Below the pieces are notes generated by a model that was given only the letters and a program-made list of their open reading frames with translations, ran no database searches and was not told where the DNA came from. This document shows positions 49,460 through 63,060 of a DNA stretch of 64,000 nt, one piece after another; positions within the stretch are counted from its first letter, which is position 1, and each line of letters begins with the position of its first letter. The DNA lies in NCBI RefSeq assembly GCF_026409565.1, contig NZ_CP112881.1:2797501-2861500 (forward strand), read 5' to 3'. Both the position numbers and the translations under genes were made by a program. This stretch comes from Sneathiella aquimaris. Its GTDB lineage: Bacteria > Pseudomonadota > Alphaproteobacteria > Sneathiellales > Sneathiellaceae.

Positions 49460-51244
49460 ATGCTAAGAAACGGCAATACGATGATTTTAAGAAACCTTTT
49501 TCCTTTCTGCGCCTTGTTGGTCCTTTCGTTTGGTCTTGGCGCCTGTTCGTCTGTTACAAAGGGAACCACTCAGGAGATTTACGTAGAAACCATTGATGTT
49601 GAAGATGCCAACTGCACCCTAACCAACGACAAAGGGAACTGGACAGTCAGCAATACACCTGGATTTGCGACCGTTACTCGCGGAGGCGGTAGCCTCCGTG
49701 TGGAATGTCAAAAAGCAAGCTACGAAAAAGCCGAAGAATTGATTTCCGAAAAATTTGAAGAAATGACTTTGGGCAATGTTCTGATTGGCGGACTCGTTGG
49801 CATCGCTGTTGATGCTGCATCCGGCGCTGCTTTTCGTTATCCAGAAACGATTTCAATACCAATGACCCTGCTGCCAGGCCACCAGATACCTCTATCACCC
49901 GGTCAAGTTCCGGTCGCAAATACTCTTGTTTCGCCATCAGGGATCCAACGAGCCGCTGTTTCTCCACCTTCCAACAACCCTGAGCTTAAAAAGCTTCAGG
50001 GTAACTGGATGGGGTATGCCGGTCATGGCTGTATTGATGTTTCTGGTCGCGCCTCTGAAGTTACCATTAAAGGTGAAATTGAAGCAGACAATCTCAAGAT
50101 TGAAATCAACACGGCGTCTATTCAGGCTGGCAAGGCACCGCCCTACTATGCAGAAGCAAAGATACCTTCTTCAAAGACAATCACCTTTCTGGAACCCTAT
50201 CAAACGATCCAGAAACTTGATATCAATATGAATAATTCAAGCCGTTGGATAAGCGCAGTGTTTGATAACAATTGCGAGGTCAAATTAAAGCGGTCCCCAC
50301 GAACCAGAATTTCCAAGGAATTTGATCCCAGCAATGCCAAAATCAAGGCACAGCCAACGCCTGCATCGCTCACCTCTTTACAACCCGCCGATTTACAACC
50401 CGCCGAAAAAATCAGCGTTCAACAGACTATGCCGGCCTCCCCAACCATTTGGCGGGGACGCAGTCCCTATGGATGCGTTTATCACAATACACGCCCTGCC
50501 GAAATATTAGCGGACGCAAGCATTAAAGACGGTAAGATTTCTTTAGGACTACTTTTAAAAAACGTTGGTGACATGTCGCCAGAAGTTTTTAATGGGGAAT
50601 TACCGATCCCTCCGACTGATTTAGTCGTCTTCGAACGCCCGTTTTCATCTGTTGAAAAAGCGTTTGTTTCTATTAACCGACAACAGAATAGTATTTTCAT
50701 CAAATTAACTGAGCAATGTGAAATTAACCTTCAAACTGTCACGATTACAGCTCCAGGAACAGTTCCGCCGAAACAAACAACCCGTTCTTTCCAGCAAGCA
50801 CCCGCTCATCAGGAGGCGGCCCCAAAGGTTCCAGGAATTCAACCTTTGAATGCCAAGGCTCTGAAACAGATGCAAGGATATTGGACAGGGTATGAAGGCC
50901 TTGGTTGCGTACATACAATTGGGAGTTGGCCGGCCTCGGTAACCGTTGGCGCCCACGTCAAAGACGAAAGGATCAAGTTGCTGTTTGAAATCAGAAATGT
51001 ATTTGCAACCCAAAGCATGGGTGACTTCCAGGGGGAAGGCATTATTCCTGCCACTCAAAAGATGCGATTTGAAAAACCTATTGGAGACGCAAATTTCGCG
51101 CTAATCAACTTCTCAAAATCGGGGCAGTATATTTCGGTTGACTTGGACAATACCTGCACAATCCGGCTTAAAAAGACCAACAGACGAACGATACCAGCAG
51201 ATTTTAAAGGCAAACCACCTGAAATCCAAAAAGCCGCCCTCTAA
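49460..51244 (+). CDS. Lipoprotein with three tandem copies of an unrecognised domain
   Basis: The 594-residue product has a lipoprotein signal with lipobox LGAC and lipidated Cys29. An N-terminal part (about 30-150) contains SLRVECQKASYEKAEE and a glycine-zipper-like stretch (NVLIGGLVGIAVDAASGAAF), as in outer-membrane PEGA-like lipoproteins. Three repeats of about 100 residues follow (about 178-278, 329-430, 470-575), separated by Pro/Gln-rich linkers. Each opens with W-x-G-x4-GC (NWMGYAGHGCI, IWRGRSPYGCV, YWTGYEGLGCV) and closes with a second cysteine in CEVKLK, CEINLQ or CTIRLK. This suggests one disulfide per domain. Function is unknown. An in-frame ATG at 49481 is an alternative start. 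Confidence 0.7.
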   Translation: MLRNGNTMILRNLFPFCALLVLSFGLGACSSVTKGTTQEIYVETIDVEDANCTLTNDKGNWTVSNTPGFATVTRGGGSLRVECQKASYEKAEELISEKFEEMTLGNVLIGGLVGIAVDAASGAAFRYPETISIPMTLLPGHQIPLSPGQVPVANTLVSPSGIQRAAVSPPSNNPELKKLQGNWMGYAGHGCIDVSGRASEVTIKGEIEADNLKIEINTASIQAGKAPPYYAEAKIPSSKTITFLEPYQTIQKLDINMNNSSRWISAVFDNNCEVKLKRSPRTRISKEFDPSNAKIKAQPTPASLTSLQPADLQPAEKISVQQTMPASPTIWRGRSPYGCVYHNTRPAEILADASIKDGKISLGLLLKNVGDMSPEVFNGELPIPPTDLVVFERPFSSVEKAFVSINRQQNSIFIKLTEQCEINLQTVTITAPGTVPPKQTTRSFQQAPAHQEAAPKVPGIQPLNAKALKQMQGYWTGYEGLGCVHTIGSWPASVTVGAHVKDERIKLLFEIRNVFATQSMGDFQGEGIIPATQKMRFEKPIGDANFALINFSKSGQYISVDLDNTCTIRLKKTNRRTIPADFKGKPPEIQKAAL

Positions 51245-53461: not shown

Positions 53462-53492
53462 TAGGCCGCGTTCTCGCGGCCTAATCTTTTTC
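53462..53492 (+). terminator. Intrinsic terminator of the moxR-coxE operon
   Basis: AGGCCGCG and CGCGGCCT form an 8-bp stem with TTCT loop, followed by AATCTTTTTC. It overlaps the 3' end of the convergent minus-strand gene. Confidence 0.8.
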
Positions 53493-54032
53493 TTCAACAA
53501 ACTTGATGGACGCAAGCAGTCTGGTGACCCGTGCCAAGGTTAGTTTTTGCAAAATAATGCTGATCAAAAGATAATATACAGCGACATGCAAAACTGTGTC
53601 GTTCAATAACGTTCTCGAATAATAGATGCCTGCAATCACTGCCATCATTACGAAGAACCATAACCGGCCACAGGTTTTCGCCCGTGGGATCAATTTTTGC
53701 AATTTATCACTATGAAGCTCATGCTTGTACCAAAGGTCAAAAACCGTCGAGATGCTTAAAACGGGAATAACAACAAACAACACCAGCAATCCGACACTAT
53801 AGGCACCATGCCCGGTCTTAACCAATTCCATGGCAGCAATGACCAGAGAATACTGACCATCCAGCCCAAGATATCCGTTCAACGTGACCAGAGGGGCAGC
53901 CACGCCAAATCCCAAAAGCGCTGCTGCAAAAATCGTCAACAGCCCCACAAATCGATCGAACCCGACCGCATGCTTGGAAATGGTATTATATCCGGATCGA
54001 CCGACCAATAGTCGCTCAAAAAACTGACGCAT
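53481..54032 (-). CDS. Four-helix membrane protein, PqiA-like
   Basis: The 183-residue protein has about four hydrophobic helices (LLTIFAAALLGFGVAAPLVT, GLLVLFVVIPVLSISTVFDL, LWFFVMMAVIAGIYYS, VAVYYLLISIILQKL). The pattern PLVTL...GHGAYSVGLLVLFVVIPVL resembles one half of a paraquat-inducible protein A. PqiA helps lipid transport across the envelope with MCE proteins, but none is nearby and the protein is half-length, so function is uncertain. It starts at ATG 54032 after AGGGA. Its own promoter (54062-54089) sits just past the terminator of the RHS gene, making it the next gene on that strand. Confidence 0.55.
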   Translation of the reverse strand: MRQFFERLLVGRSGYNTISKHAVGFDRFVGLLTIFAAALLGFGVAAPLVTLNGYLGLDGQYSLVIAAMELVKTGHGAYSVGLLVLFVVIPVLSISTVFDLWYKHELHSDKLQKLIPRAKTCGRLWFFVMMAVIAGIYYSRTLLNDTVLHVAVYYLLISIILQKLTLARVTRLLASIKFVEEKD

Positions 54033-54169: not shown

Positions 54170-57100
54170 TTAGTCAATGGTCCCCGGGACAGAAGGACGT
54201 TCTATCGCGGGCCCTTCCGCCCGATCCGACCATTCTGAAGAGTGCCGACTTTCGCTAACAGGCTGTGTGACCGATTCAGACTCCGAATTTTCACCGCTCC
54301 GTTCAACGCCAGGACCTTGGCCTCCATCCGAAGACACTTCCGCATCTGAACCGGCATCTGAGTGCCCATACTGTCCATCCCATTGCACTTCATGCTGCCT
54401 CAGGATTGCCATCCACTCATCCGTTGGCAAAAAGGCTCTGTCATCAAATTTTGCCAACCGCAGTCCCTGCACCGGTCCTAGAGCGCGGAACCAGAAGCCA
54501 CTTGTTCTTGGATTTGCGGAACTACGCTGCTTAATGATCGTAAACGATTTTCGGCTCCAGGCGTTGATATAGGCCAATGGACTGGCCGCAGGCGCCAATA
54601 TTATCAGCGCCAGGTTTCGCAACCAAGCCGTTCGAAAATCGGCCCAGTCATGATTGGGAAGTGCCGGAAAAATAGCCGCAAGGCCGCCATAATATCCTGC
54701 GGATCCAACAAGATACCACGCATACATCTGCATAACATAGGCAGGATACCATAGGGACTGCAAACGTGCATTCCATGAACCAGGCTCAAAATGCCTCGCA
54801 AAAAACCCACCTCTGGCATTAAATTTACGATAGGCGATCGAGGCTTTGATGATCGTCCGACGCCACCACGGCATTGCGGCGAGATCCTCCTCCGTCATAT
54901 TCTGGTCGTAAGTTGGGTTTGGTGCCTTCGTCATAAGATAATAGGGCAGAAGAGCCGCAGAGCCGAGGAAACTAAACACAAAGGTGCGAAGCAGTCTCCA
55001 ACCGATTTCTTCACCAAAATCATTCATTCCGTCCGAAACCATTGGGAACCCACGGGCCCAGCGCGCCAGATACGTGATTGCCGTGAAAGCAACCAATTGA
55101 ACCGATACTTTCCAGAACATGCGACGCAGGGAGGCTGATAAGTAGTCTTTGCTTGTCGCACCTCGTTCAGCAATTCCTTTCCAATAGTACGCTTCGTTCG
55201 CTGTATACCCCTTTCCATATGCCGAGAAGGCCGTAACAGTCATCGCGTATAAGCCCAGATCCTTGAAAAAGCCTGGTGTCACCACGTTCCCATCGGAAAA
55301 TGTATACGACGTCGGGAACCACCATGCGAGCAAGGCCGACCCAAGCAAACTTTGCAAATAGCCCCCCGTTCGCGTCCACCCTTGCATGTAACCCGATTGT
55401 GCAATTCGATCATAGGCAGCCTTATCCTGCGCGTCCGGCTCGTCACCCACGGGCGCAGGGCCCACTTCCGGTGCCTGTGCGCCCGGCAGGATGCCAAAGG
55501 TCCAACTCCAGAAACTTGGATAACGCACCCAATTTTCAGGTGCCGGCAAAACGTCACCTCCGTCATCACTAAGGGACACTTCTCTCAAGCGAACAATCTG
55601 CGGATCCGCCATAGCCTGTTCTTCAAGGGATCCATCGGACGCGTTGGATTTTACTTCAAGCTCTACGCCCTGAAGAATTGGATCAGGCCGGGATGGGAGT
55701 GCAGATCGTCCTGCCTCAATATCCATGGCATATGTTGGACTTTCCATCCGACCATCACGGTCAACAAAATTGACCGGGTCGCCACTGGTGTACGCATAGG
55801 CGTCTTTAGTCGCGCGGGCAGGATCAATGCTCAAATATTTACCGATCGTCGGGTCAAGCAAACGGGCGCCCCCATTTATCAGCTGGGTTTCCGTGTCATA
55901 TTCGAGCCCCGCAAACTTGAACCGGAAATTATTATTACCGCCAGTCAGGCCGTTATCCTGGATCATTCCGTATGGATGATAAAAGACCGACGCAGTCTGA
56001 TGACCTGCTTCGTCAGACACAGAAATCACACTGCCGCGAATATCATAGTGAAAATAAACCGAATGAGCTGCTTTAGGAGTTCCGTCCCCCCCTTCCAACG
56101 CCGCGTGGGCCGCTGGCGTTAAAATTGCCATGAGAAAGGACGCCATTACGAAAGAAGACACAATCGTCATAGCCGGGTTTCTACGGGATGAAGACATAGG
56201 GAAGACGACCCTGTTCGACCGATCGGTAACTCTTTCGAAAACTGCCAGAGAAAATATCGCAATTGAAAAAATGCCGAGCAACATCATCAATCCAGTGTTC
56301 AAATGGCTGCTTCCTGCTGCAATCGCTTTATCAATAAGGGTGCTCAACTGATGCTGAAAAGTCCCATGTGTTTCATTTCCAGAAGCAGGCGCAAAACCAG
56401 CAAAATCATCCTCTTCCAGTATTTTGGTAAAGGCCGCAACACGACCCATATAGTCCCAAACATACCGGGTCGCCTGCATACGACCCTCGTCTAAGAGCGA
56501 TACCTCATAAAAAGGATCAACGTAAAAGGTAGTGGATCCTTCTTCAGCCCGTTTTTCTAACCGCTGTCCTGTATGATCATAAACGAACTCAGTCACCGCT
56601 GATACACCGCCAGAACGAAGGTTGCTTTTCAGAAGATTATTTTCAATATCGAATAGAAATTCTCTGACTTCACCGCGTCGCGTAAGTTGATTGATATTGC
56701 CAAATTTGTCATAATTTATGCCGGTTTCCTGCCCAGACACATTGACGCTTTCAGGGTCCCGCTGACGGATTTCGGTGCGATGGTTAAACCGGTCGAACGA
56801 TTGACGTGCAACGACGCGCCCATCGATTGTGTCCTTATAGGTCTTTAGACGTTGATCTTCTGTATAGGTATAGTCCCGTTTGGCATGACGAACGGTCTTG
56901 CGTTCTTTCAAGTAACGATTTTCTTCGGATACCAAATCCGTGCCGGGCTTGAAATCATACGCGAGCCGCGAAAAAACCTGTTCCGGGTCCTGTTCACCGC
57001 GGTATGTAACAATTTCCGTTATTTTACCGTCGTTCCCCCACTGATAAGTTTCGACAACCTCATTGCCAAGAAAACGGCTTAGCTTCTTTGTCCCGTCTTC

Positions 57101-59833
57101 AGAAATTTCAGGACGATATTCAATGATCGGTTTATCCAGGCGTCCCCATCCATCCGGCGCCTGCTCCAACCAGTTGATCCGGGCAAGACGGCTTCCCTCA
57201 TAGGTGTAACTAATTTTAGAACCATCGGGATAGGTTACTGTCTTCAACTGATCATTCTGATAGTCATAAAGCAGTGTAAAGCTCAGAAACTCTTCATCAG
57301 AAACAGGAAAGCGTACGGTTTTTTCCGTTACAAGGCCTTTGGTCGAGTATAAGAACTCAACTTCATGCCCCTCAGGTAAAATGGCCTTTCCAATTTTCTG
57401 CGGGTGTTGGTTTGAATAGGTAAATTCATAGAATTTCCGATTGGGTAGGGTTTTGCGTTTAAGTCTGTTCTGGTCGTCATACTCCAAAAAGAGAGTTTCA
57501 TCCGCCCGGCTTATCTCGGAAACAAGGCCCTGTTTGTTATAGTCAAAAGACGTATCGCCATACCCTTCCTTAACCTCACGTATAATTTTCCCTTCCCGAT
57601 TATACGTTATCTCCTGAAAGCGACCGGCTTCATCCATTACTCTGGTGACCTGCCCTTGCGGAGAATAGGCATTCTCAAGGTAGCTTTCGGAGCGCTGTGT
57701 CCCGTCCGGCCCGATCTCCTGACCCGATATTTTCACAACACGTCCCAAACTGTCTGTTACTTTTTCAGCCCGTTTGGTAAGCAGGAGTTGATCATCCTCA
57801 GAGAACATTTTGACATTATTCAGAACACGCAAATAACCGTTTGCCAGGGTCTCTTTCGTGACTTCCTTTACAATTGACACCTTTGAAGACGATGCTTTTC
57901 GCGGGTCCGCGATGTCAACGCGCTGCCCGACCTCAAGGCCCGCCGCATCCAGGATCAGCTGAGTTCTAGACCCATTGGGCAAGACCTCTTTGATAACCCG
58001 TCCCGTCCCTGCATCATATTCCAAGAACGCCGATGTTAATGTTTTCCCTTCCTGCATTTCCACGGAAACCGGAAATGTTTTAAAAGCATCATCATATTTA
58101 ATGCGTGTTTCAGTATTTCCCTGACGGGCAACAATAATATTTCCGTGTCTGTCCAGCTCTTGAGAGGATGTCTTATTTTCCAATACTTGCCCCGCACGGG
58201 TTCCGGTAATGGTTGACCCGGTTAACAGATCACCGTCGAAGCGGTAAGCCCATTCCTTGGTTGAAACCTCTGAAGTCTCAGCGGATTTGAACTGGCGTGA
58301 CACCAACAGATTGCCTGCATCTTCCGCCACAGGACGAAGTGCGACCTGATCCAGATAGGTGAAAGAATGCTCTCCCTCCTCTGTCGTGATTGAAACGATC
58401 CTGCCTTTGGCATCATACTTACGTTTGTGAGTAAGCATCGTTGTTATCTGCCCTGACGGATTGTATTGCTGCGCAATCGTTTCCTTCAGGAGTGTACTGG
58501 TTACATGTGCCGCTTTGTGCGGTGCATAGACATAAGTTTCATCAGATAAGGGCTGGAAAACAGGGGCTGGGTCACCGTCTTCAAAAGTAACATCAGCAAC
58601 TGTTTCTTTCACAAGTATGCCCGCAGTTTCCCCTTCTCCAAACTCCGTTAAGGACCCAATCCCGCCATCAGCCGGATAGCTTTTGGCCAAACCAAACCCT
58701 ACTCTTTTTCCCTCCTTAATCTGAGGCTTTTCAAACAGATAATTTTCTACCCCCATAAAACGTCCCTGATCTTTCAGAACAAGGGAAGAAAGAACTGGGC
58801 CGGACTTGGTTTTGCCATAAGTAAACTCTGTTTCCCCGCCCCGGCCATTTTGAACGGCTGACAAAAGGCCCCCTTCTTTGGTCCAGGAAAATTCATAAGG
58901 CGCGAAGCAAGAAAGCGATTTACCTTCTCCCTGGGCGCATTCACTGAGTGTGGAAAGCATCCCTGACCGGGAATATGTCAATTGATAGGCCCGCACCAGT
59001 TTTTCAGCGACAGAACTTGTAAGGCCAATAAGCCGCTCTGGATTTTTGTCATCATAGGTTAAATGAACCGCACGCAGGTTCCGCTTTTCGGCCTTATCCT
59101 GACCATAGTAAATTGTACTGATGGCACCTGTTTTTGCGTCATACCGGTATAAAACAAAATTTTCAAACCGGTCAAAAATAGTGTTAATTTCCCACGGCCC
59201 TGTTTCCAGCGTATCCATAGTTGGTGCCGTATAATATTGACGCAGCCCATTCCCATCCTTCAGCAGAAAACCCACATCAGATTTCTGCAAGAGAATACGC
59301 GGATCATTGGGTAAAGAATACAAAGTCCCAGACTTCGCCCCGGTTACTGGTATCAATGGCACGTTGCCAAGACAGTATTTTCCCCCCTGACCACACTGAG
59401 TAATGCTTTCAGGATGGGTCAGTGCAACTTCAAATCCGGCGTTCTGATCGACTTCGGATTTCGCAATACGGATCTTTAGATCCGGTTGCAGGCCGTTGGT
59501 GCCCGGTGCGATACCGATTGGAAAACGAGCTTCTGGCATTCCACGATACCGGTCGACAGTCACATAAAACTGGGCGTCTTCTCGCTCAAGGGTAGAGCCT
59601 TGTTCAGGCGGTAATTTAATGTGTGGGCGAAGTTTTAAGATCAGCGAGAGTTCTTCATCAAGCTTTTTTCCGATGAGACTGGGTTCAAAATCCAAAATTG
59701 TTTCGGCAGTCACCGTTTGGGTTGTGTTTGCATAAACCCCAGTACCCATCACCAGACAGGAAAGGCCAGCTGACAACAGCATTGCCTTGATCAGAGCTTT
59801 AAATCTGCAGGGCAGAGTTTCCGTTCGTTTCAT
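54170..59833 (-). CDS. Giant RHS/YD-repeat exported protein with multi-helix membrane C-terminal domain
   Basis: A 1887-residue protein. Residues 1-35 form a signal peptide (ending GVYA). RHS/YD repeats fill roughly 230-1180, with many units of the type G-x2-(x)-x-YDxxGxL (for example YEYDDQNRLKRKTLPN as read in LFLEYDDQNRLKRKT). Two membrane helices follow at about 1183-1203 and 1221-1243, joined by an Arg-rich loop. The RHS-associated core ends INGGARLLDPTIGKYLSIDP...DRDGR at residue 1362. The 525 residues after it vary in RHS proteins and often carry a toxin. Here they hold about six hydrophobic segments (near 1492, 1524, 1571, 1614, 1694, 1738) and a Ser/Glu/Gly-rich tail from about 1800. 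No nuclease, deaminase or protease motif is recognised. No secretion genes or VgrG are nearby. Confidence 0.85.
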   Translation of the reverse strand: MKRTETLPCRFKALIKAMLLSAGLSCLVMGTGVYANTTQTVTAETILDFEPSLIGKKLDEELSLILKLRPHIKLPPEQGSTLEREDAQFYVTVDRYRGMPEARFPIGIAPGTNGLQPDLKIRIAKSEVDQNAGFEVALTHPESITQCGQGGKYCLGNVPLIPVTGAKSGTLYSLPNDPRILLQKSDVGFLLKDGNGLRQYYTAPTMDTLETGPWEINTIFDRFENFVLYRYDAKTGAISTIYYGQDKAEKRNLRAVHLTYDDKNPERLIGLTSSVAEKLVRAYQLTYSRSGMLSTLSECAQGEGKSLSCFAPYEFSWTKEGGLLSAVQNGRGGETEFTYGKTKSGPVLSSLVLKDQGRFMGVENYLFEKPQIKEGKRVGFGLAKSYPADGGIGSLTEFGEGETAGILVKETVADVTFEDGDPAPVFQPLSDETYVYAPHKAAHVTSTLLKETIAQQYNPSGQITTMLTHKRKYDAKGRIVSITTEEGEHSFTYLDQVALRPVAEDAGNLLVSRQFKSAETSEVSTKEWAYRFDGDLLTGSTITGTRAGQVLENKTSSQELDRHGNIIVARQGNTETRIKYDDAFKTFPVSVEMQEGKTLTSAFLEYDAGTGRVIKEVLPNGSRTQLILDAAGLEVGQRVDIADPRKASSSKVSIVKEVTKETLANGYLRVLNNVKMFSEDDQLLLTKRAEKVTDSLGRVVKISGQEIGPDGTQRSESYLENAYSPQGQVTRVMDEAGRFQEITYNREGKIIREVKEGYGDTSFDYNKQGLVSEISRADETLFLEYDDQNRLKRKTLPNRKFYEFTYSNQHPQKIGKAILPEGHEVEFLYSTKGLVTEKTVRFPVSDEEFLSFTLLYDYQNDQLKTVTYPDGSKISYTYEGSRLARINWLEQAPDGWGRLDKPIIEYRPEISEDGTKKLSRFLGNEVVETYQWGNDGKITEIVTYRGEQDPEQVFSRLAYDFKPGTDLVSEENRYLKERKTVRHAKRDYTYTEDQRLKTYKDTIDGRVVARQSFDRFNHRTEIRQRDPESVNVSGQETGINYDKFGNINQLTRRGEVREFLFDIENNLLKSNLRSGGVSAVTEFVYDHTGQRLEKRAEEGSTTFYVDPFYEVSLLDEGRMQATRYVWDYMGRVAAFTKILEEDDFAGFAPASGNETHGTFQHQLSTLIDKAIAAGSSHLNTGLMMLLGIFSIAIFSLAVFERVTDRSNRVVFPMSSSRRNPAMTIVSSFVMASFLMAILTPAAHAALEGGDGTPKAAHSVYFHYDIRGSVISVSDEAGHQTASVFYHPYGMIQDNGLTGGNNNFRFKFAGLEYDTETQLINGGARLLDPTIGKYLSIDPARATKDAYAYTSGDPVNFVDRDGRMESPTYAMDIEAGRSALPSRPDPILQGVELEVKSNASDGSLEEQAMADPQIVRLREVSLSDDGGDVLPAPENWVRYPSFWSWTFGILPGAQAPEVGPAPVGDEPDAQDKAAYDRIAQSGYMQGWTRTGGYLQSLLGSALLAWWFPTSYTFSDGNVVTPGFFKDLGLYAMTVTAFSAYGKGYTANEAYYWKGIAERGATSKDYLSASLRRMFWKVSVQLVAFTAITYLARWARGFPMVSDGMNDFGEEIGWRLLRTFVFSFLGSAALLPYYLMTKAPNPTYDQNMTEEDLAAMPWWRRTIIKASIAYRKFNARGGFFARHFEPGSWNARLQSLWYPAYVMQMYAWYLVGSAGYYGGLAAIFPALPNHDWADFRTAWLRNLALIILAPAASPLAYINAWSRKSFTIIKQRSSANPRTSGFWFRALGPVQGLRLAKFDDRAFLPTDEWMAILRQHEVQWDGQYGHSDAGSDAEVSSDGGQGPGVERSGENSESESVTQPVSESRHSSEWSDRAEGPAIERPSVPGTID

Positions 59834-60027
59834 TATACGTGCACCTTTTTCAAGCTGAATGTAGTTCGCTCGCGTCTCAAAAGACGGCTTTCATTAAAAG
59901 GAGAACGCAGGAAGAGCAGAGTCTGTGAGGAACCCATTTAAAAATCATACGATTTCACGAAAGGCCTGGTTGCGCTGTCTTAGTAAACATCAACAAAATT
60001 AGATTGTTACAGACAAAGGTATCTCAA

Positions 60028-63000
60028 ATGAAAAAAAACTTGCTAAAAAGGAGCATATTAGCGTGCACTGCATTGGCTATATTAATGGGCTGGAATTCCG
60101 CCGCGACAGCATCCTACAAAGTCTCCCGAGATGAATTTGGTGTCCCGGCGATTGAAACTGACGACACATTGGAAATGTGGTTCTCTTATGGTTTCATGCA
60201 GGCACGCGATCGCCTGCTTCAACTTGAAATTCTAAGACAGGAAGCCTACGGAAATCTGCTTACGGATGAAAAATTTCTGGCAGAATCCGATACACTGGTT
60301 AGCCGGCAAACGCGCAACTGGCGCAGAAAACATTTATTTCCAGACTTACGCAACACTTTAAAGCAGGAACTCTCAGATCTGCCCGGTGGCTATGGAATGC
60401 AGGAAAAGCTGACCTGTTTTGCCAAGGGCATCGAAGCTTTCAAATCCCTTCTGTTACCTACAAGCGCCCAACAGGATGATCTCAGTGCAGATTGTATTAC
60501 GTCAGAGAACCTCAGCAACCTGCTCGTCGCGGAGTTTGGTCCGGACAAACAAGTACCGCCCCAAGAGGTGGCGTTTTTAAACGGCAAATTCCAGTCAGTA
60601 TTGTTTGGAAAAGACGAAAAAAAACATGCCGATTTTTATACCCCCTGGTCAGCGATCGACAGCATGGCACTTTTCCAGCTTCGGGTAATGCATGAATTTT
60701 CACTTCGTAACACCGAGATGAAAAACCTCACTTTGCTAAAGTCTCTTATCGACCAGAACAATCAAAATACGCAGGTTGCGGTTCAAAAGTTCAACTCTGT
60801 GAAGTGGGCCCTTCTTGAAACAGCAAAGACAACCCTGCCGACAACCGCTGATCATGTTGAGATAGCAGCGAAGCAGAGGCGCCAGTATCATCAGGCGCTA
60901 ATTGAAAACACCCGGGTGATTGGCAAAGGCTATTCGATAAATGGCTGTGAAATTCAAAATCCGGAAACTTTAAATGGTCGGCTTGAGGAAGCCGTAAGAT
61001 TGGCTTCTCATAAGACCGAAGCGCCCTTTGCCATGAACGCGAGCAACTGGTGGGTCATTTCTCAGGAAAACTCCGGTAATATAAACAGCCTCCTGTATAA
61101 CGGGCCCCAAGTACCGGCACCAGATCCAAGCCACACCTATCAAGTCTCGTTGACCAGCAATCAGGAAGATGATCCGTTTCGATTTTCCGGAAGCGGTTTT
61201 GTCGGGACATTGAATTTTTGGCAGGGTCACAACGAGACAATGGCGTTTGGTTTGACAGCAGGAAACGCAGACGTTTCAGATGTCTTCTGTGTGTCACTTG
61301 AAAGAAAGAGAAGCGATGAAAACTGGTCTTTTCAAGGACATCCCTTCCTTCCAATTCTGGAAGGAAACGACCTCAAAGAATTCCAAAAGGTCGCCAGTAC
61401 ATATCAGAGGTTGTTTAAAAAGGAACTGCAAAATATTTACACACTCGGGAATACAGGCTGGCCCGTTCTTACGGTCGATGAAAATGCTGGTGGGAAAACC
61501 GCAACGGCATACATTCTACGTTATAACTGGCAAGGGCTTACCGCAAAAACAATCCAAAATTGGTTAAAAGCGACACAGGCGAAAAACCTCAACGAGTGGA
61601 ACCGTTCTCTAGATGGTGTCGCTGGCAATTTCAACCTGTCTGCCGCCCACAAGGATGGTAGCATCGGATATCGGCTTGTCGGTGCGCTTCCCCAAAAAAA
61701 AGGGACATCCTTCAAGAGCCACGATCCGAAAGAATGGCAATATTATCCAGACTACGATCCGCGCCTGCCCGCACCGTTTTCGCCCTTTGATGGTTGGGAA
61801 AATGATGGCGGCTGGATCCTGCATGGGAAATATAATCCCGTAACGACGTTCCATAAGCTTTCATTGGATCAGGATCAAGCTCCGACAGCAAGCAACGCGC
61901 GTATTCAGTATATTGCCAACTGGAACCAAAAGCCGTTTATCAATATGCCGGACACGGATCTGGATTACGACAGCTACACGCCCTACGATCGCGTCTTCAT
62001 TCTGGAGCAGGAAATGCAGGGCCGGGCGGAGCCATGGACGTTGGAAGCATTATTGGATTTTAACGGCCGCTTACAACGGATGGACGTCAATTACTTTGCG
62101 TTCAAACCATTTCTTACATACCTTGAGGTTCAATCGCAAAGGCTTGATGAACAGACAATAAAGGCGATCAGTCTTATCAATAGCTGGAACGGGATGAGAG
62201 GTAACTATCGCGGCAACGATTTACGGGGCCTGCATAAAGGTCATGTTCTTTTTTACCATTGGCTGGAAAGCCTGAACCGGCATATCGCCGCAAGACTTTC
62301 TGATGACAACCTTGATGTTAGCCTGGCTGAAAGCGATACCTTTCTCTTAGGTCTTCATGAAGAGAAAAAGGACGACGGTGATGCGGATCCCTCAAAAATT
62401 CAAAAGGAAAACCTGAAAAAGTGGTCGAAAACTTTTATAGGCCAGCTTGAAGCGGGCCAGATGAAATTGAAACAACCCAAACTCAATCATCCTGGCACGG
62501 AAATTCCAACAATTGAAACCAGTCATAATATTCATCTGGCAAGCCGGATTATTCTTCAAAGCCTGCACGCGGCCTTTGCCGATGAACGCTTGACGATATC
62601 CGGCATGAGTGAATTCCCGGAATTCTCATATGACAAATATCAGTTCTTTCTCTTGAAAGACGCCGCCGATGCCAAGTCAGTTATGCAGTCTGCCTTGTCG
62701 TATGCATTGAAAAAAACGGCCGAAGACTGGCCTGAGTATGATAGCCCTTCGGCCTATATGGAACGCGAATCTGCTACCTATACAGGCCTAACGAAAACGC
62801 TGGGGGCCAAGGATACCCAAATCGGTTTTAGACCTGAAGCCCTTAACACCCGGCATTTCCGAAACCGGGGAGCCTTCAACATGGGGGCCGCGCTGGGTTG
62901 GTATGGCGTCGACGCAAAGAATATCAGTTCACCCGGCATTCGTGAATATCGCAATGCGCCGGGAGCAGGTCATCCAACGCCTGGTAATGGAATTGAAACC

Positions 63001-63060
63001 GACAATAGCGTCAATCAGCTCCCGCTCTATCAGGAAAATGACTATCGGGATATGAAATAA
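60028..63060 (+). CDS. Penicillin-acylase-family Ntn hydrolase, exported
   Basis: Members of this family are autoprocessed periplasmic amidohydrolases acting on penicillins, acyl-homoserine lactones or other amides. The start is ATG 60028 with AAAGG upstream (1010 residues); a TTG at 60004 is rejected. A signal peptide covers about 1-28. The alpha chain has FSYGFMQARDRLLQLEILRQ. The predicted autocleavage is before Ser339 in MNASNWWVIS, which becomes the N-terminal nucleophile of the beta chain. Other beta-chain blocks are AFGLTAGNADVSDVF, GNFNLSAAHKDGSIGY and the late GAGHPTPGNG. It is 150-250 residues longer than typical members. It is divergent from the RHS gene, and a stem follows the stop. 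The substrate is unknown. Confidence 0.9.
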   Translation: MKKNLLKRSILACTALAILMGWNSAATASYKVSRDEFGVPAIETDDTLEMWFSYGFMQARDRLLQLEILRQEAYGNLLTDEKFLAESDTLVSRQTRNWRRKHLFPDLRNTLKQELSDLPGGYGMQEKLTCFAKGIEAFKSLLLPTSAQQDDLSADCITSENLSNLLVAEFGPDKQVPPQEVAFLNGKFQSVLFGKDEKKHADFYTPWSAIDSMALFQLRVMHEFSLRNTEMKNLTLLKSLIDQNNQNTQVAVQKFNSVKWALLETAKTTLPTTADHVEIAAKQRRQYHQALIENTRVIGKGYSINGCEIQNPETLNGRLEEAVRLASHKTEAPFAMNASNWWVISQENSGNINSLLYNGPQVPAPDPSHTYQVSLTSNQEDDPFRFSGSGFVGTLNFWQGHNETMAFGLTAGNADVSDVFCVSLERKRSDENWSFQGHPFLPILEGNDLKEFQKVASTYQRLFKKELQNIYTLGNTGWPVLTVDENAGGKTATAYILRYNWQGLTAKTIQNWLKATQAKNLNEWNRSLDGVAGNFNLSAAHKDGSIGYRLVGALPQKKGTSFKSHDPKEWQYYPDYDPRLPAPFSPFDGWENDGGWILHGKYNPVTTFHKLSLDQDQAPTASNARIQYIANWNQKPFINMPDTDLDYDSYTPYDRVFILEQEMQGRAEPWTLEALLDFNGRLQRMDVNYFAFKPFLTYLEVQSQRLDEQTIKAISLINSWNGMRGNYRGNDLRGLHKGHVLFYHWLESLNRHIAARLSDDNLDVSLAESDTFLLGLHEEKKDDGDADPSKIQKENLKKWSKTFIGQLEAGQMKLKQPKLNHPGTEIPTIETSHNIHLASRIILQSLHAAFADERLTISGMSEFPEFSYDKYQFFLLKDAADAKSVMQSALSYALKKTAEDWPEYDSPSAYMERESATYTGLTKTLGAKDTQIGFRPEALNTRHFRNRGAFNMGAALGWYGVDAKNISSPGIREYRNAPGAGHPTPGNGIETDNSVNQLPLYQENDYRDMK

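What the first reader, a model, noticed from the sequence alone, without database searches (positions are those of the whole stretch)
54170..55748. RHS protein whose post-core domain is a six-helix membrane domain
Seen: after the RHS core motif ending DRDGR (residue 1362) there are about 525 residues with about six hydrophobic segments and a Ser/Glu/Gly-rich tail. Known: residues after the core in RHS proteins vary and commonly carry toxins such as nucleases or deaminases. Inference: this one could be a membrane-inserting or pore-forming effector, or a non-toxic envelope protein. No known toxin motif is recognised, so the domain may be undescribed.
Basis: partly seen in the sequence, partly recalled or inferred. 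Interest (0 to 1): 0.75.

Follow-up and report, generated by a model that had tools for sequence, protein, structure and literature searches.

The report
RHS protein with six-helix membrane tail
A marine bacterium of the genus Sneathiella makes a very large exported shell (RHS) protein whose tail is not a swappable toxin but one constant, undescribed six-helix membrane domain, an arrangement seen before in a mosquito saliva protein (SGS1) whose shell hides six membrane helices.

Summary
After the RHS core (ends R1362), residues 1363-1887 form an acidic linker, six weakly hydrophobic segments kept at the same places in nine homologues, a basic motif and an acidic Ser/Glu/Gly tail. No Pfam, NCBIfam, PHROG or PDB match. 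The genus is Sneathiella; the domain was found only there.

It is not a polymorphic toxin module. All nine homologues with a readable end carry the same domain, and it is better conserved (44-49%) than the RHS repeats (22-32%). No dedicated immunity gene was found: the membrane protein downstream is a PqiA-type gene present in every complete Sneathiella genome, with or without the RHS gene. The genus has no T6SS (TssC/VipB 0/25).

The closest solved core is mosquito SGS1, aligned through its cleavage site, which is followed by six predicted membrane helices hidden in the shell.

Most likely an exported, self-cleaving RHS shell carrying a constant membrane-inserting cargo; a resident inner-membrane protein is the main rival. 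New variant of a known kind.

The parts
54170..59833 (-). RHS gene, 1887 codons, about 210 kDa
   Evidence: ORF; Pfam RHS_repeat E 4e-17; TIGR03696 and YD repeats
59726..59833 (-). N-terminal signal peptide (res 1-36, VYA|N), predicted
   Evidence: hydrophobic segment after basic N-terminus; present in all homologues with a complete start
56324..59725 (-). N-terminal domain and YD/RHS repeats (res 37-1170), the predicted shell
   Evidence: 22-32% mean identity within the family
56237..56293 (-). TM-a, strongly hydrophobic helix inside the RHS core region (res 1181-1199)
   Evidence: present in all family members
56105..56173 (-). TM-b with signal-peptidase-like AxA|(A/L) end (res 1221-1243); basic loop before it
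   Evidence: P[TSA]xxA|(A/L) end conserved in 8 of 8 aligned
55751..55981 (-). RHS-associated core (res 1285-1361)
   Evidence: TIGR03696 E 1e-14; best PDB match SGS1 8fjp
55760..55825 (-). Putative aspartyl autoprotease pair D1337 and D1358, predicted cut R1362|M1363
   Evidence: both Asp kept in all aligned homologues, spacing 21 as in SGS1
54173..55747 (-). Post-core domain (res 1363-1887)
   Evidence: found only in Sneathiella
55424..55747 (-). Acidic, poorly conserved linker (res 1363-1470, pI 4.1)
54557..55369 (-). Six-helix region (res 1489-1759; segments near 1489, 1526, 1572, 1617, 1705, 1741)
   Evidence: six peaks in nine-sequence average; all-helical low-confidence models
54389..54556 (-). 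Conserved basic motif RKSFTI..NPRTSGF..LGP..GLR (res 1760-1815)
   Evidence: 49% mean identity
54173..54388 (-). Acidic Ser/Glu/Gly-rich tail (res 1816-1887)
   Evidence: conserved in character, not in sequence
53481..54032 (-). Downstream 183-aa PqiA-type membrane protein; a core gene of the genus, not a dedicated immunity gene
60004..63060 (+). Divergent penicillin-amidase-family gene; orthologues only in RHS-positive genomes, adjacent to the RHS gene in several

Best explanation
An exported RHS shell protein of the SGS1/Tse5 type whose constant six-helix C-terminal moiety is a membrane-inserting cargo. Shown by sequence: signal peptide, YD repeats, RHS core with both autoprotease aspartates, six conserved weakly hydrophobic segments, basic motif, acidic tail. 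Inferred: the protein leaves the cytoplasm by Sec; the in-core helix pair (TM-a/TM-b) tethers the shell to the inner membrane and is cut by signal peptidase after TM-b; the core aspartyl protease cuts at R1362|M1363 (by homology with SGS1 and Tse5); the freed 58-kDa moiety stays held by the shell until a cell is contacted, then its marginal helices insert into a membrane and permeabilise it or form a channel. It is a fixed payload, not a swappable one, and no dedicated self-immunity gene was found, which suggests a non-kin or eukaryotic target, or an activity that needs release.
For: Closest solved core is mosquito SGS1 (8fjp, E 1e-9), aligned through its autocleavage site, with the same Asp spacing of 21. 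SGS1 has six predicted membrane helices after the cut, hidden in its shell (PMC9935623). Tse5 shows an RHS shell delivering an integral-membrane toxin (PMC10684867). Both Asp are conserved in all aligned homologues. The six segments are far less hydrophobic (crude insertion score +0.8 to +3.4) than TM-a/TM-b (-3.2/-1.2) or most helices of the neighbouring MFS transporter, and the six-segment mean is weak in all seven members tested, as expected for helices that must stay soluble before insertion. L082, an alphaproteobacterial RHS protein outside the genus with a hydrophobic region, a HINT-like region and a further C-terminal domain, has the same in-core helix pair. Patchy presence (9/25 genomes) at two sites.
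Against: No activity was tested. The moiety (58 kDa, about 70,000 A3; helix part with basic motif about 47,500 A3) exceeds the 32,000 A3 cavity reported for Tse5, so full encapsulation in a shell of ordinary size is unlikely. No immunity gene. No sequence homology of the domain to the SGS1 helices. No known delivery machine: T6SS absent.
Confidence: 0.45

Rival explanations
1. Resident envelope protein: the RHS shell sits in the periplasm, anchored by TM-a/TM-b, and the six-helix domain is permanently folded in the producer's own inner membrane as an anchor, sensor or transporter-like module; no toxin is released.
For: Constant domain, better conserved than the repeats; no immunity gene; moiety larger than a typical cavity. 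Basic loops 2-3, 4-5 and post-6 all lie on one side, a regular positive-inside pattern. The second RHS family, without signal peptide, also ends in six helices, more hydrophobic ones in several members.
Against: After a signal peptide and a helix pair the domain starts on the periplasmic side, which puts its basic loops outside, against the positive-inside rule. Helices are unusually weak for a resident transporter. Conserved autoprotease aspartates would have no evident purpose. Patchy distribution.
Confidence: 0.35
2. Ordinary toxin-immunity pair: the C-terminal domain is a pore-forming toxin and the 183-aa four-helix protein downstream is its immunity protein.
For: The membrane protein lies directly downstream on the same strand in the window and in all RHS genes at that chromosomal site; immunity to ionophore toxins is often a membrane protein (general knowledge).
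Against: It is present in 23/25 genomes (18/18 complete) including those without the RHS gene, in the same place next to the vWA/AAA genes. It is a PqiA-domain protein (12/13 members, best E 2e-8). RHS genes at the second site have no such neighbour (L027, L029/L030).
Confidence: 0.08
3. Two-protein system with the divergent penicillin-amidase-family enzyme: the RHS protein and the amidase act together (for example on an N-acyl amide signal or substrate hydrolysed by the enzyme).
For: Orthologues (>=41% identity) occur in 7 of 9 RHS-positive and 0 of 16 RHS-negative genomes, divergently adjacent in G000, G005, G015, G017, G024.
Against: G012 has the RHS gene without it; in G008 and G019 it is elsewhere; both genes follow one clade of the genus (tree), so shared ancestry may explain the association. 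The amidase sits in a larger M20/MmgE/TRAP block that may be the real unit.
Confidence: 0.07

Closest known systems
[quoted passage not shown]
   Same: RHS shell, aspartyl autoprotease core with the same Asp spacing, followed at the cut site by six predicted membrane helices and a further tail; nearest core in PDB by sequence
   Different: SGS proteins are 3360-3400 aa with receptor domains, lack a signal peptide, have a Tox-SGS domain, and are eukaryotic; no sequence homology of the helices was detected
Tse5 (Pseudomonas aeruginosa T6SS Rhs effector)
   Same: RHS shell delivering an integral-membrane, pore-forming C-terminal fragment freed by the core autoprotease (PMC10684867)
   Different: 16-kDa fragment, PAAR-like N-terminus, T6SS delivery; here 58 kDa, Sec signal, no T6SS in the genus
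Bacterial teneurin-like proteins (PMC13018210)
   Same: surface RHS shells with autoprotease core and C-terminal moieties, one of which disturbs membranes
   Different: highly variable C-termini with cognate immunity genes; here one constant C-terminus and none
Second Sneathiella RHS family (L053-L058)
   Same: RHS core followed by six hydrophobic segments and an acidic tail, same genus
   Different: no signal peptide, no in-core helix pair, and a domain with no demonstrable homology (hhalign probability 0.3%)

Membership tests
RHS/YD-repeat proteins | YD repeats and RHS-associated core | tested here: met
   RHS_repeat E 4e-17; TIGR03696 54.9 bits over cut-off 32.5
RHS polymorphic toxins | C-terminal domain variable between close homologues | tested here: not met
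   same domain in 9 of 9 homologues, better conserved than the repeats
RHS polymorphic toxins | dedicated immunity gene downstream | tested here: not met
   downstream gene is a PqiA-type core gene of the genus; none at the second site
RHS polymorphic toxins | two catalytic Asp of the core autoprotease | tested here: met
   D1337 and D1358 in all aligned homologues; spacing 21, first motif DPAR instead of DPxG
RHS polymorphic toxins | actual autocleavage and toxicity | not testable with these tools
   needs protein work
T6SS Rhs effectors (Tse5 type) | T6SS in the genome | tested here: not met
   VipB/TssC absent in 25 of 25 Sneathiella genomes, control E. coli positive
SGS1-like RHS shells with membrane-helix cargo | SGS-like core followed by six predicted membrane helices at the cut site | tested here: met
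   six-helix prediction by hydrophobicity only
SGS1-like RHS shells with membrane-helix cargo | helix region homologous to that of SGS1 | tested here: inconclusive
   profile against PDB sequences gave no match at E<=1; fold model too poor
SGS1-like RHS shells with membrane-helix cargo | helices housed in the shell | not testable with these tools
   needs cryo-EM; size argument speaks against complete housing
TcdB/TcaC-type (SpvB) export | SpvB domain at the N-terminus | tested here: not met
   no SpvB match in Pfam at E<=0.01

The most novel reading that the evidence does not exclude
Sneathiella carries a bacterial class of SGS1-like proteins: self-cutting RHS shells with a fixed (not polymorphic) six-helix membrane-inserting cargo and no immunity gene, arisen on two RHS chassis (one Sec-exported) with two unrelated six-helix domains. 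It would be a bacterial counterpart of the mosquito SGS architecture.
Probability: 0.3. Interest if true: 0.72.

Novelty: new variant of a known kind. Interest (0 to 1): 0.52.

Why it matters
RHS shells are thought of as carriers of exchangeable toxins guarded by immunity genes. Here the cargo slot holds one constant polytopic membrane domain with no guard, and a second, unrelated version exists in the same genus. If the moiety inserts into other membranes, it gives a tractable bacterial model for how an RHS shell keeps six membrane helices soluble and releases them, the open question raised by mosquito SGS1. If it stays in the producer, RHS proteins have an envelope role that is not toxin delivery.

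Tried and rejected
Downstream gene as immunity: rejected. T6SS delivery: rejected. Known family for the domain: nothing in Pfam, NCBIfam, PHROGs, PADLOC or PDB sequences, plasmids or viral contigs. Homology between the two six-helix domains: not demonstrable. Structure prediction with only five admissible sequences failed twice (pLDDT 46 and 53); the Foldseek search has no match below E 0.9 and is not used. Recombination between two distant RHS loci as the origin of the window arrangement: rejected as first framed, because the p166/CheY/MarR genes lie just beyond the amidase block. Two scans failed because the nine-row alignment was too divergent; the four-row one worked. One wrong coordinate put a foreign piece into alignment A6; it was redone as A7.

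Full report
OBSERVATION. The gene (54170-59833, minus strand, 1887 codons) carries RHS repeats and an RHS-associated core ending at residue 1361. The 525 residues after DRDGR were translated. In one sequence the hydrophobic segments are only modestly above chance, but the average over nine homologues has exactly six peaks, never approached by column shuffles. They lie near residues 1489, 1526, 1572, 1617, 1705 and 1741. Around them are an acidic linker (1363-1470), a conserved basic motif (1760-1815) and an acidic Ser/Glu/Gly tail (1816-1887).

WHO HAS IT. The window is from Sneathiella (Alphaproteobacteria): close relatives were identified by name as Sneathiella chinensis and unnamed alphaproteobacterial genomes. 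The domain occurs in 8 of 25 Sneathiella genomes, always behind an RHS core; a ninth genome, G017, has the RHS gene cut by a contig end. It occurs in none of the other genera in samples of 398 Pseudomonadota and 385 Alphaproteobacteria, nor in plasmids; the viral-contig scan found none. The G009 copy (23% identity, fragmented assembly) may be a contaminant.

NOT POLYMORPHIC. Mean pairwise identity: repeats 22-32%, core 51%, six-helix region 44%, basic motif 49%, tail 21%. All nine homologues share the domain. In about 22 RHS core loci of other Alphaproteobacteria the post-core parts are unrelated and mostly 20-330 aa; some are Gly/Ala-rich hydrophobic stretches followed by toxin-like domains, and none resembles this domain.

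NO IMMUNITY GENE. The 183-aa membrane protein downstream (53481-54032) is found in 23 of 25 genomes, 18 of 18 complete ones, in the same place beside the vWA and AAA genes with or without the RHS gene in nearly all loci read. Twelve of 13 members match PqiA, best E 2e-8. At the second RHS site (G015, G024) convergent unrelated genes follow.

Complete homologues start with a signal peptide. All have two strongly hydrophobic helices about 180 and 140 residues before the end of the core, separated by a basic loop, the second ending in a conserved P[TSA]xxA|(A/L) signal-peptidase-like site although the helices themselves vary. An alphaproteobacterial RHS protein outside the genus (L082), with what looks like a HINT region and another C-terminal domain, has the same helix pair ending PAFA|T, so the helix pair belongs to a wider exported RHS chassis. 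Both core aspartates (D1337, D1358) are present in all aligned members with spacing 21; the first motif is DPAR rather than DPxG, a substitution also reported in teneurin-like proteins, where an autoprotease is proposed (PMC13018210).

CLOSEST PRECEDENT. Against all PDB sequences the core best matches mosquito SGS1 and SGS4 (E 1e-9 and 8e-9), aligned through the SGS1 cut site 2733|2734, which corresponds to R1362|M1363 here. In SGS1 the cut is followed by about 230 residues with six predicted membrane helices, only partly folded and shielded in the shell (PMC9935623). Tse5 is the bacterial precedent for a shell that delivers an integral-membrane toxin (PMC10684867). No sequence homology between the Sneathiella helices and SGS1 was found, so this is likeness of architecture plus homology of the core, not membership in the SGS family.

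CARGO OR RESIDENT. For cargo: conserved autoprotease, the position, and the marginal hydrophobicity of the six segments in all seven members tested, far below TM-a and most helices of the neighbouring MFS transporter. For resident: constancy, no immunity gene, and a moiety of about 70,000 A3 against a cavity of 32,000 A3 reported for Tse5. The charge pattern puts both ends and the basic loops on one side: as a co-translational inner-membrane protein that side would be the cytoplasm, which conflicts with export by the signal peptide; for insertion from outside it would be the side of entry. I give 0.45 to cargo and 0.35 to resident.

SECOND FAMILY. Six other RHS genes of the genus (L053 in the same genome, L054-L058) and an internally deleted remnant (L065) lack a signal peptide and the in-core pair, yet end in a different six-segment domain plus acidic tail. 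hhalign finds no reliable homology between the two domains.

NEIGHBOURHOOD. In RHS-less genomes the p166 or CheY/MarR genes abut the PqiA-type gene; the RHS gene sits between them in RHS-positive genomes. In the window genome a penicillin-amidase/LysR/M20/MmgE/TRAP block also lies there. The amidase orthologue is confined to RHS-positive genomes (7 of 9 versus 0 of 16), but both follow one clade.

LIMITS. Only five homologues could be used for structure prediction, and both models are too poor to name a fold. The insertion score is a crude home-made one. Hydrophobicity alone defines the helices, and the signal peptide and cut sites are read from sequence, not predicted by a dedicated program. 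No function is demonstrated.

Noticed in passing
L053:5346-10256 (G000 chromosome about 385,345-390,255); L054-L058: Second RHS family in the genus, no signal peptide, ending in an unrelated six-segment membrane domain with paired Cys in loop 3-4 of several members and an acidic tail.
   Followed up: partly
L065:883-1806 (G006): Family-2 RHS remnant in which the N-terminus is joined in frame to the end of the C-terminal domain: an internal deletion of more than 1200 codons.
   Followed up: no
window 60004-63060: Penicillin-amidase-family gene divergent to the RHS gene; orthologues in 7 of 9 RHS-positive and 0 of 16 RHS-negative Sneathiella genomes; tandem duplicate in G008 (L100).
   Followed up: partly
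L082 (G531), about 95 and 64 residues before the core: An alphaproteobacterial RHS protein outside Sneathiella, with a HINT-like region, has the same in-core TM pair with signal-peptidase-like PAFA|T end; a possibly general exported RHS chassis.
   Followed up: partly
G000:C1:301913-302106: Isolated fragment of an RHS core in two short frames, probably a broken RHS gene.
   Followed up: no
window 49460-51244: 594-aa protein between the MFS and AAA/vWA genes with no Pfam, NCBIfam or PADLOC match.
   Followed up: no
window 53481-54032: Single-domain PqiA-type membrane protein, core to the genus but fast evolving (38-68% identity where the neighbouring vWA protein has 87-94%).
   Followed up: partly
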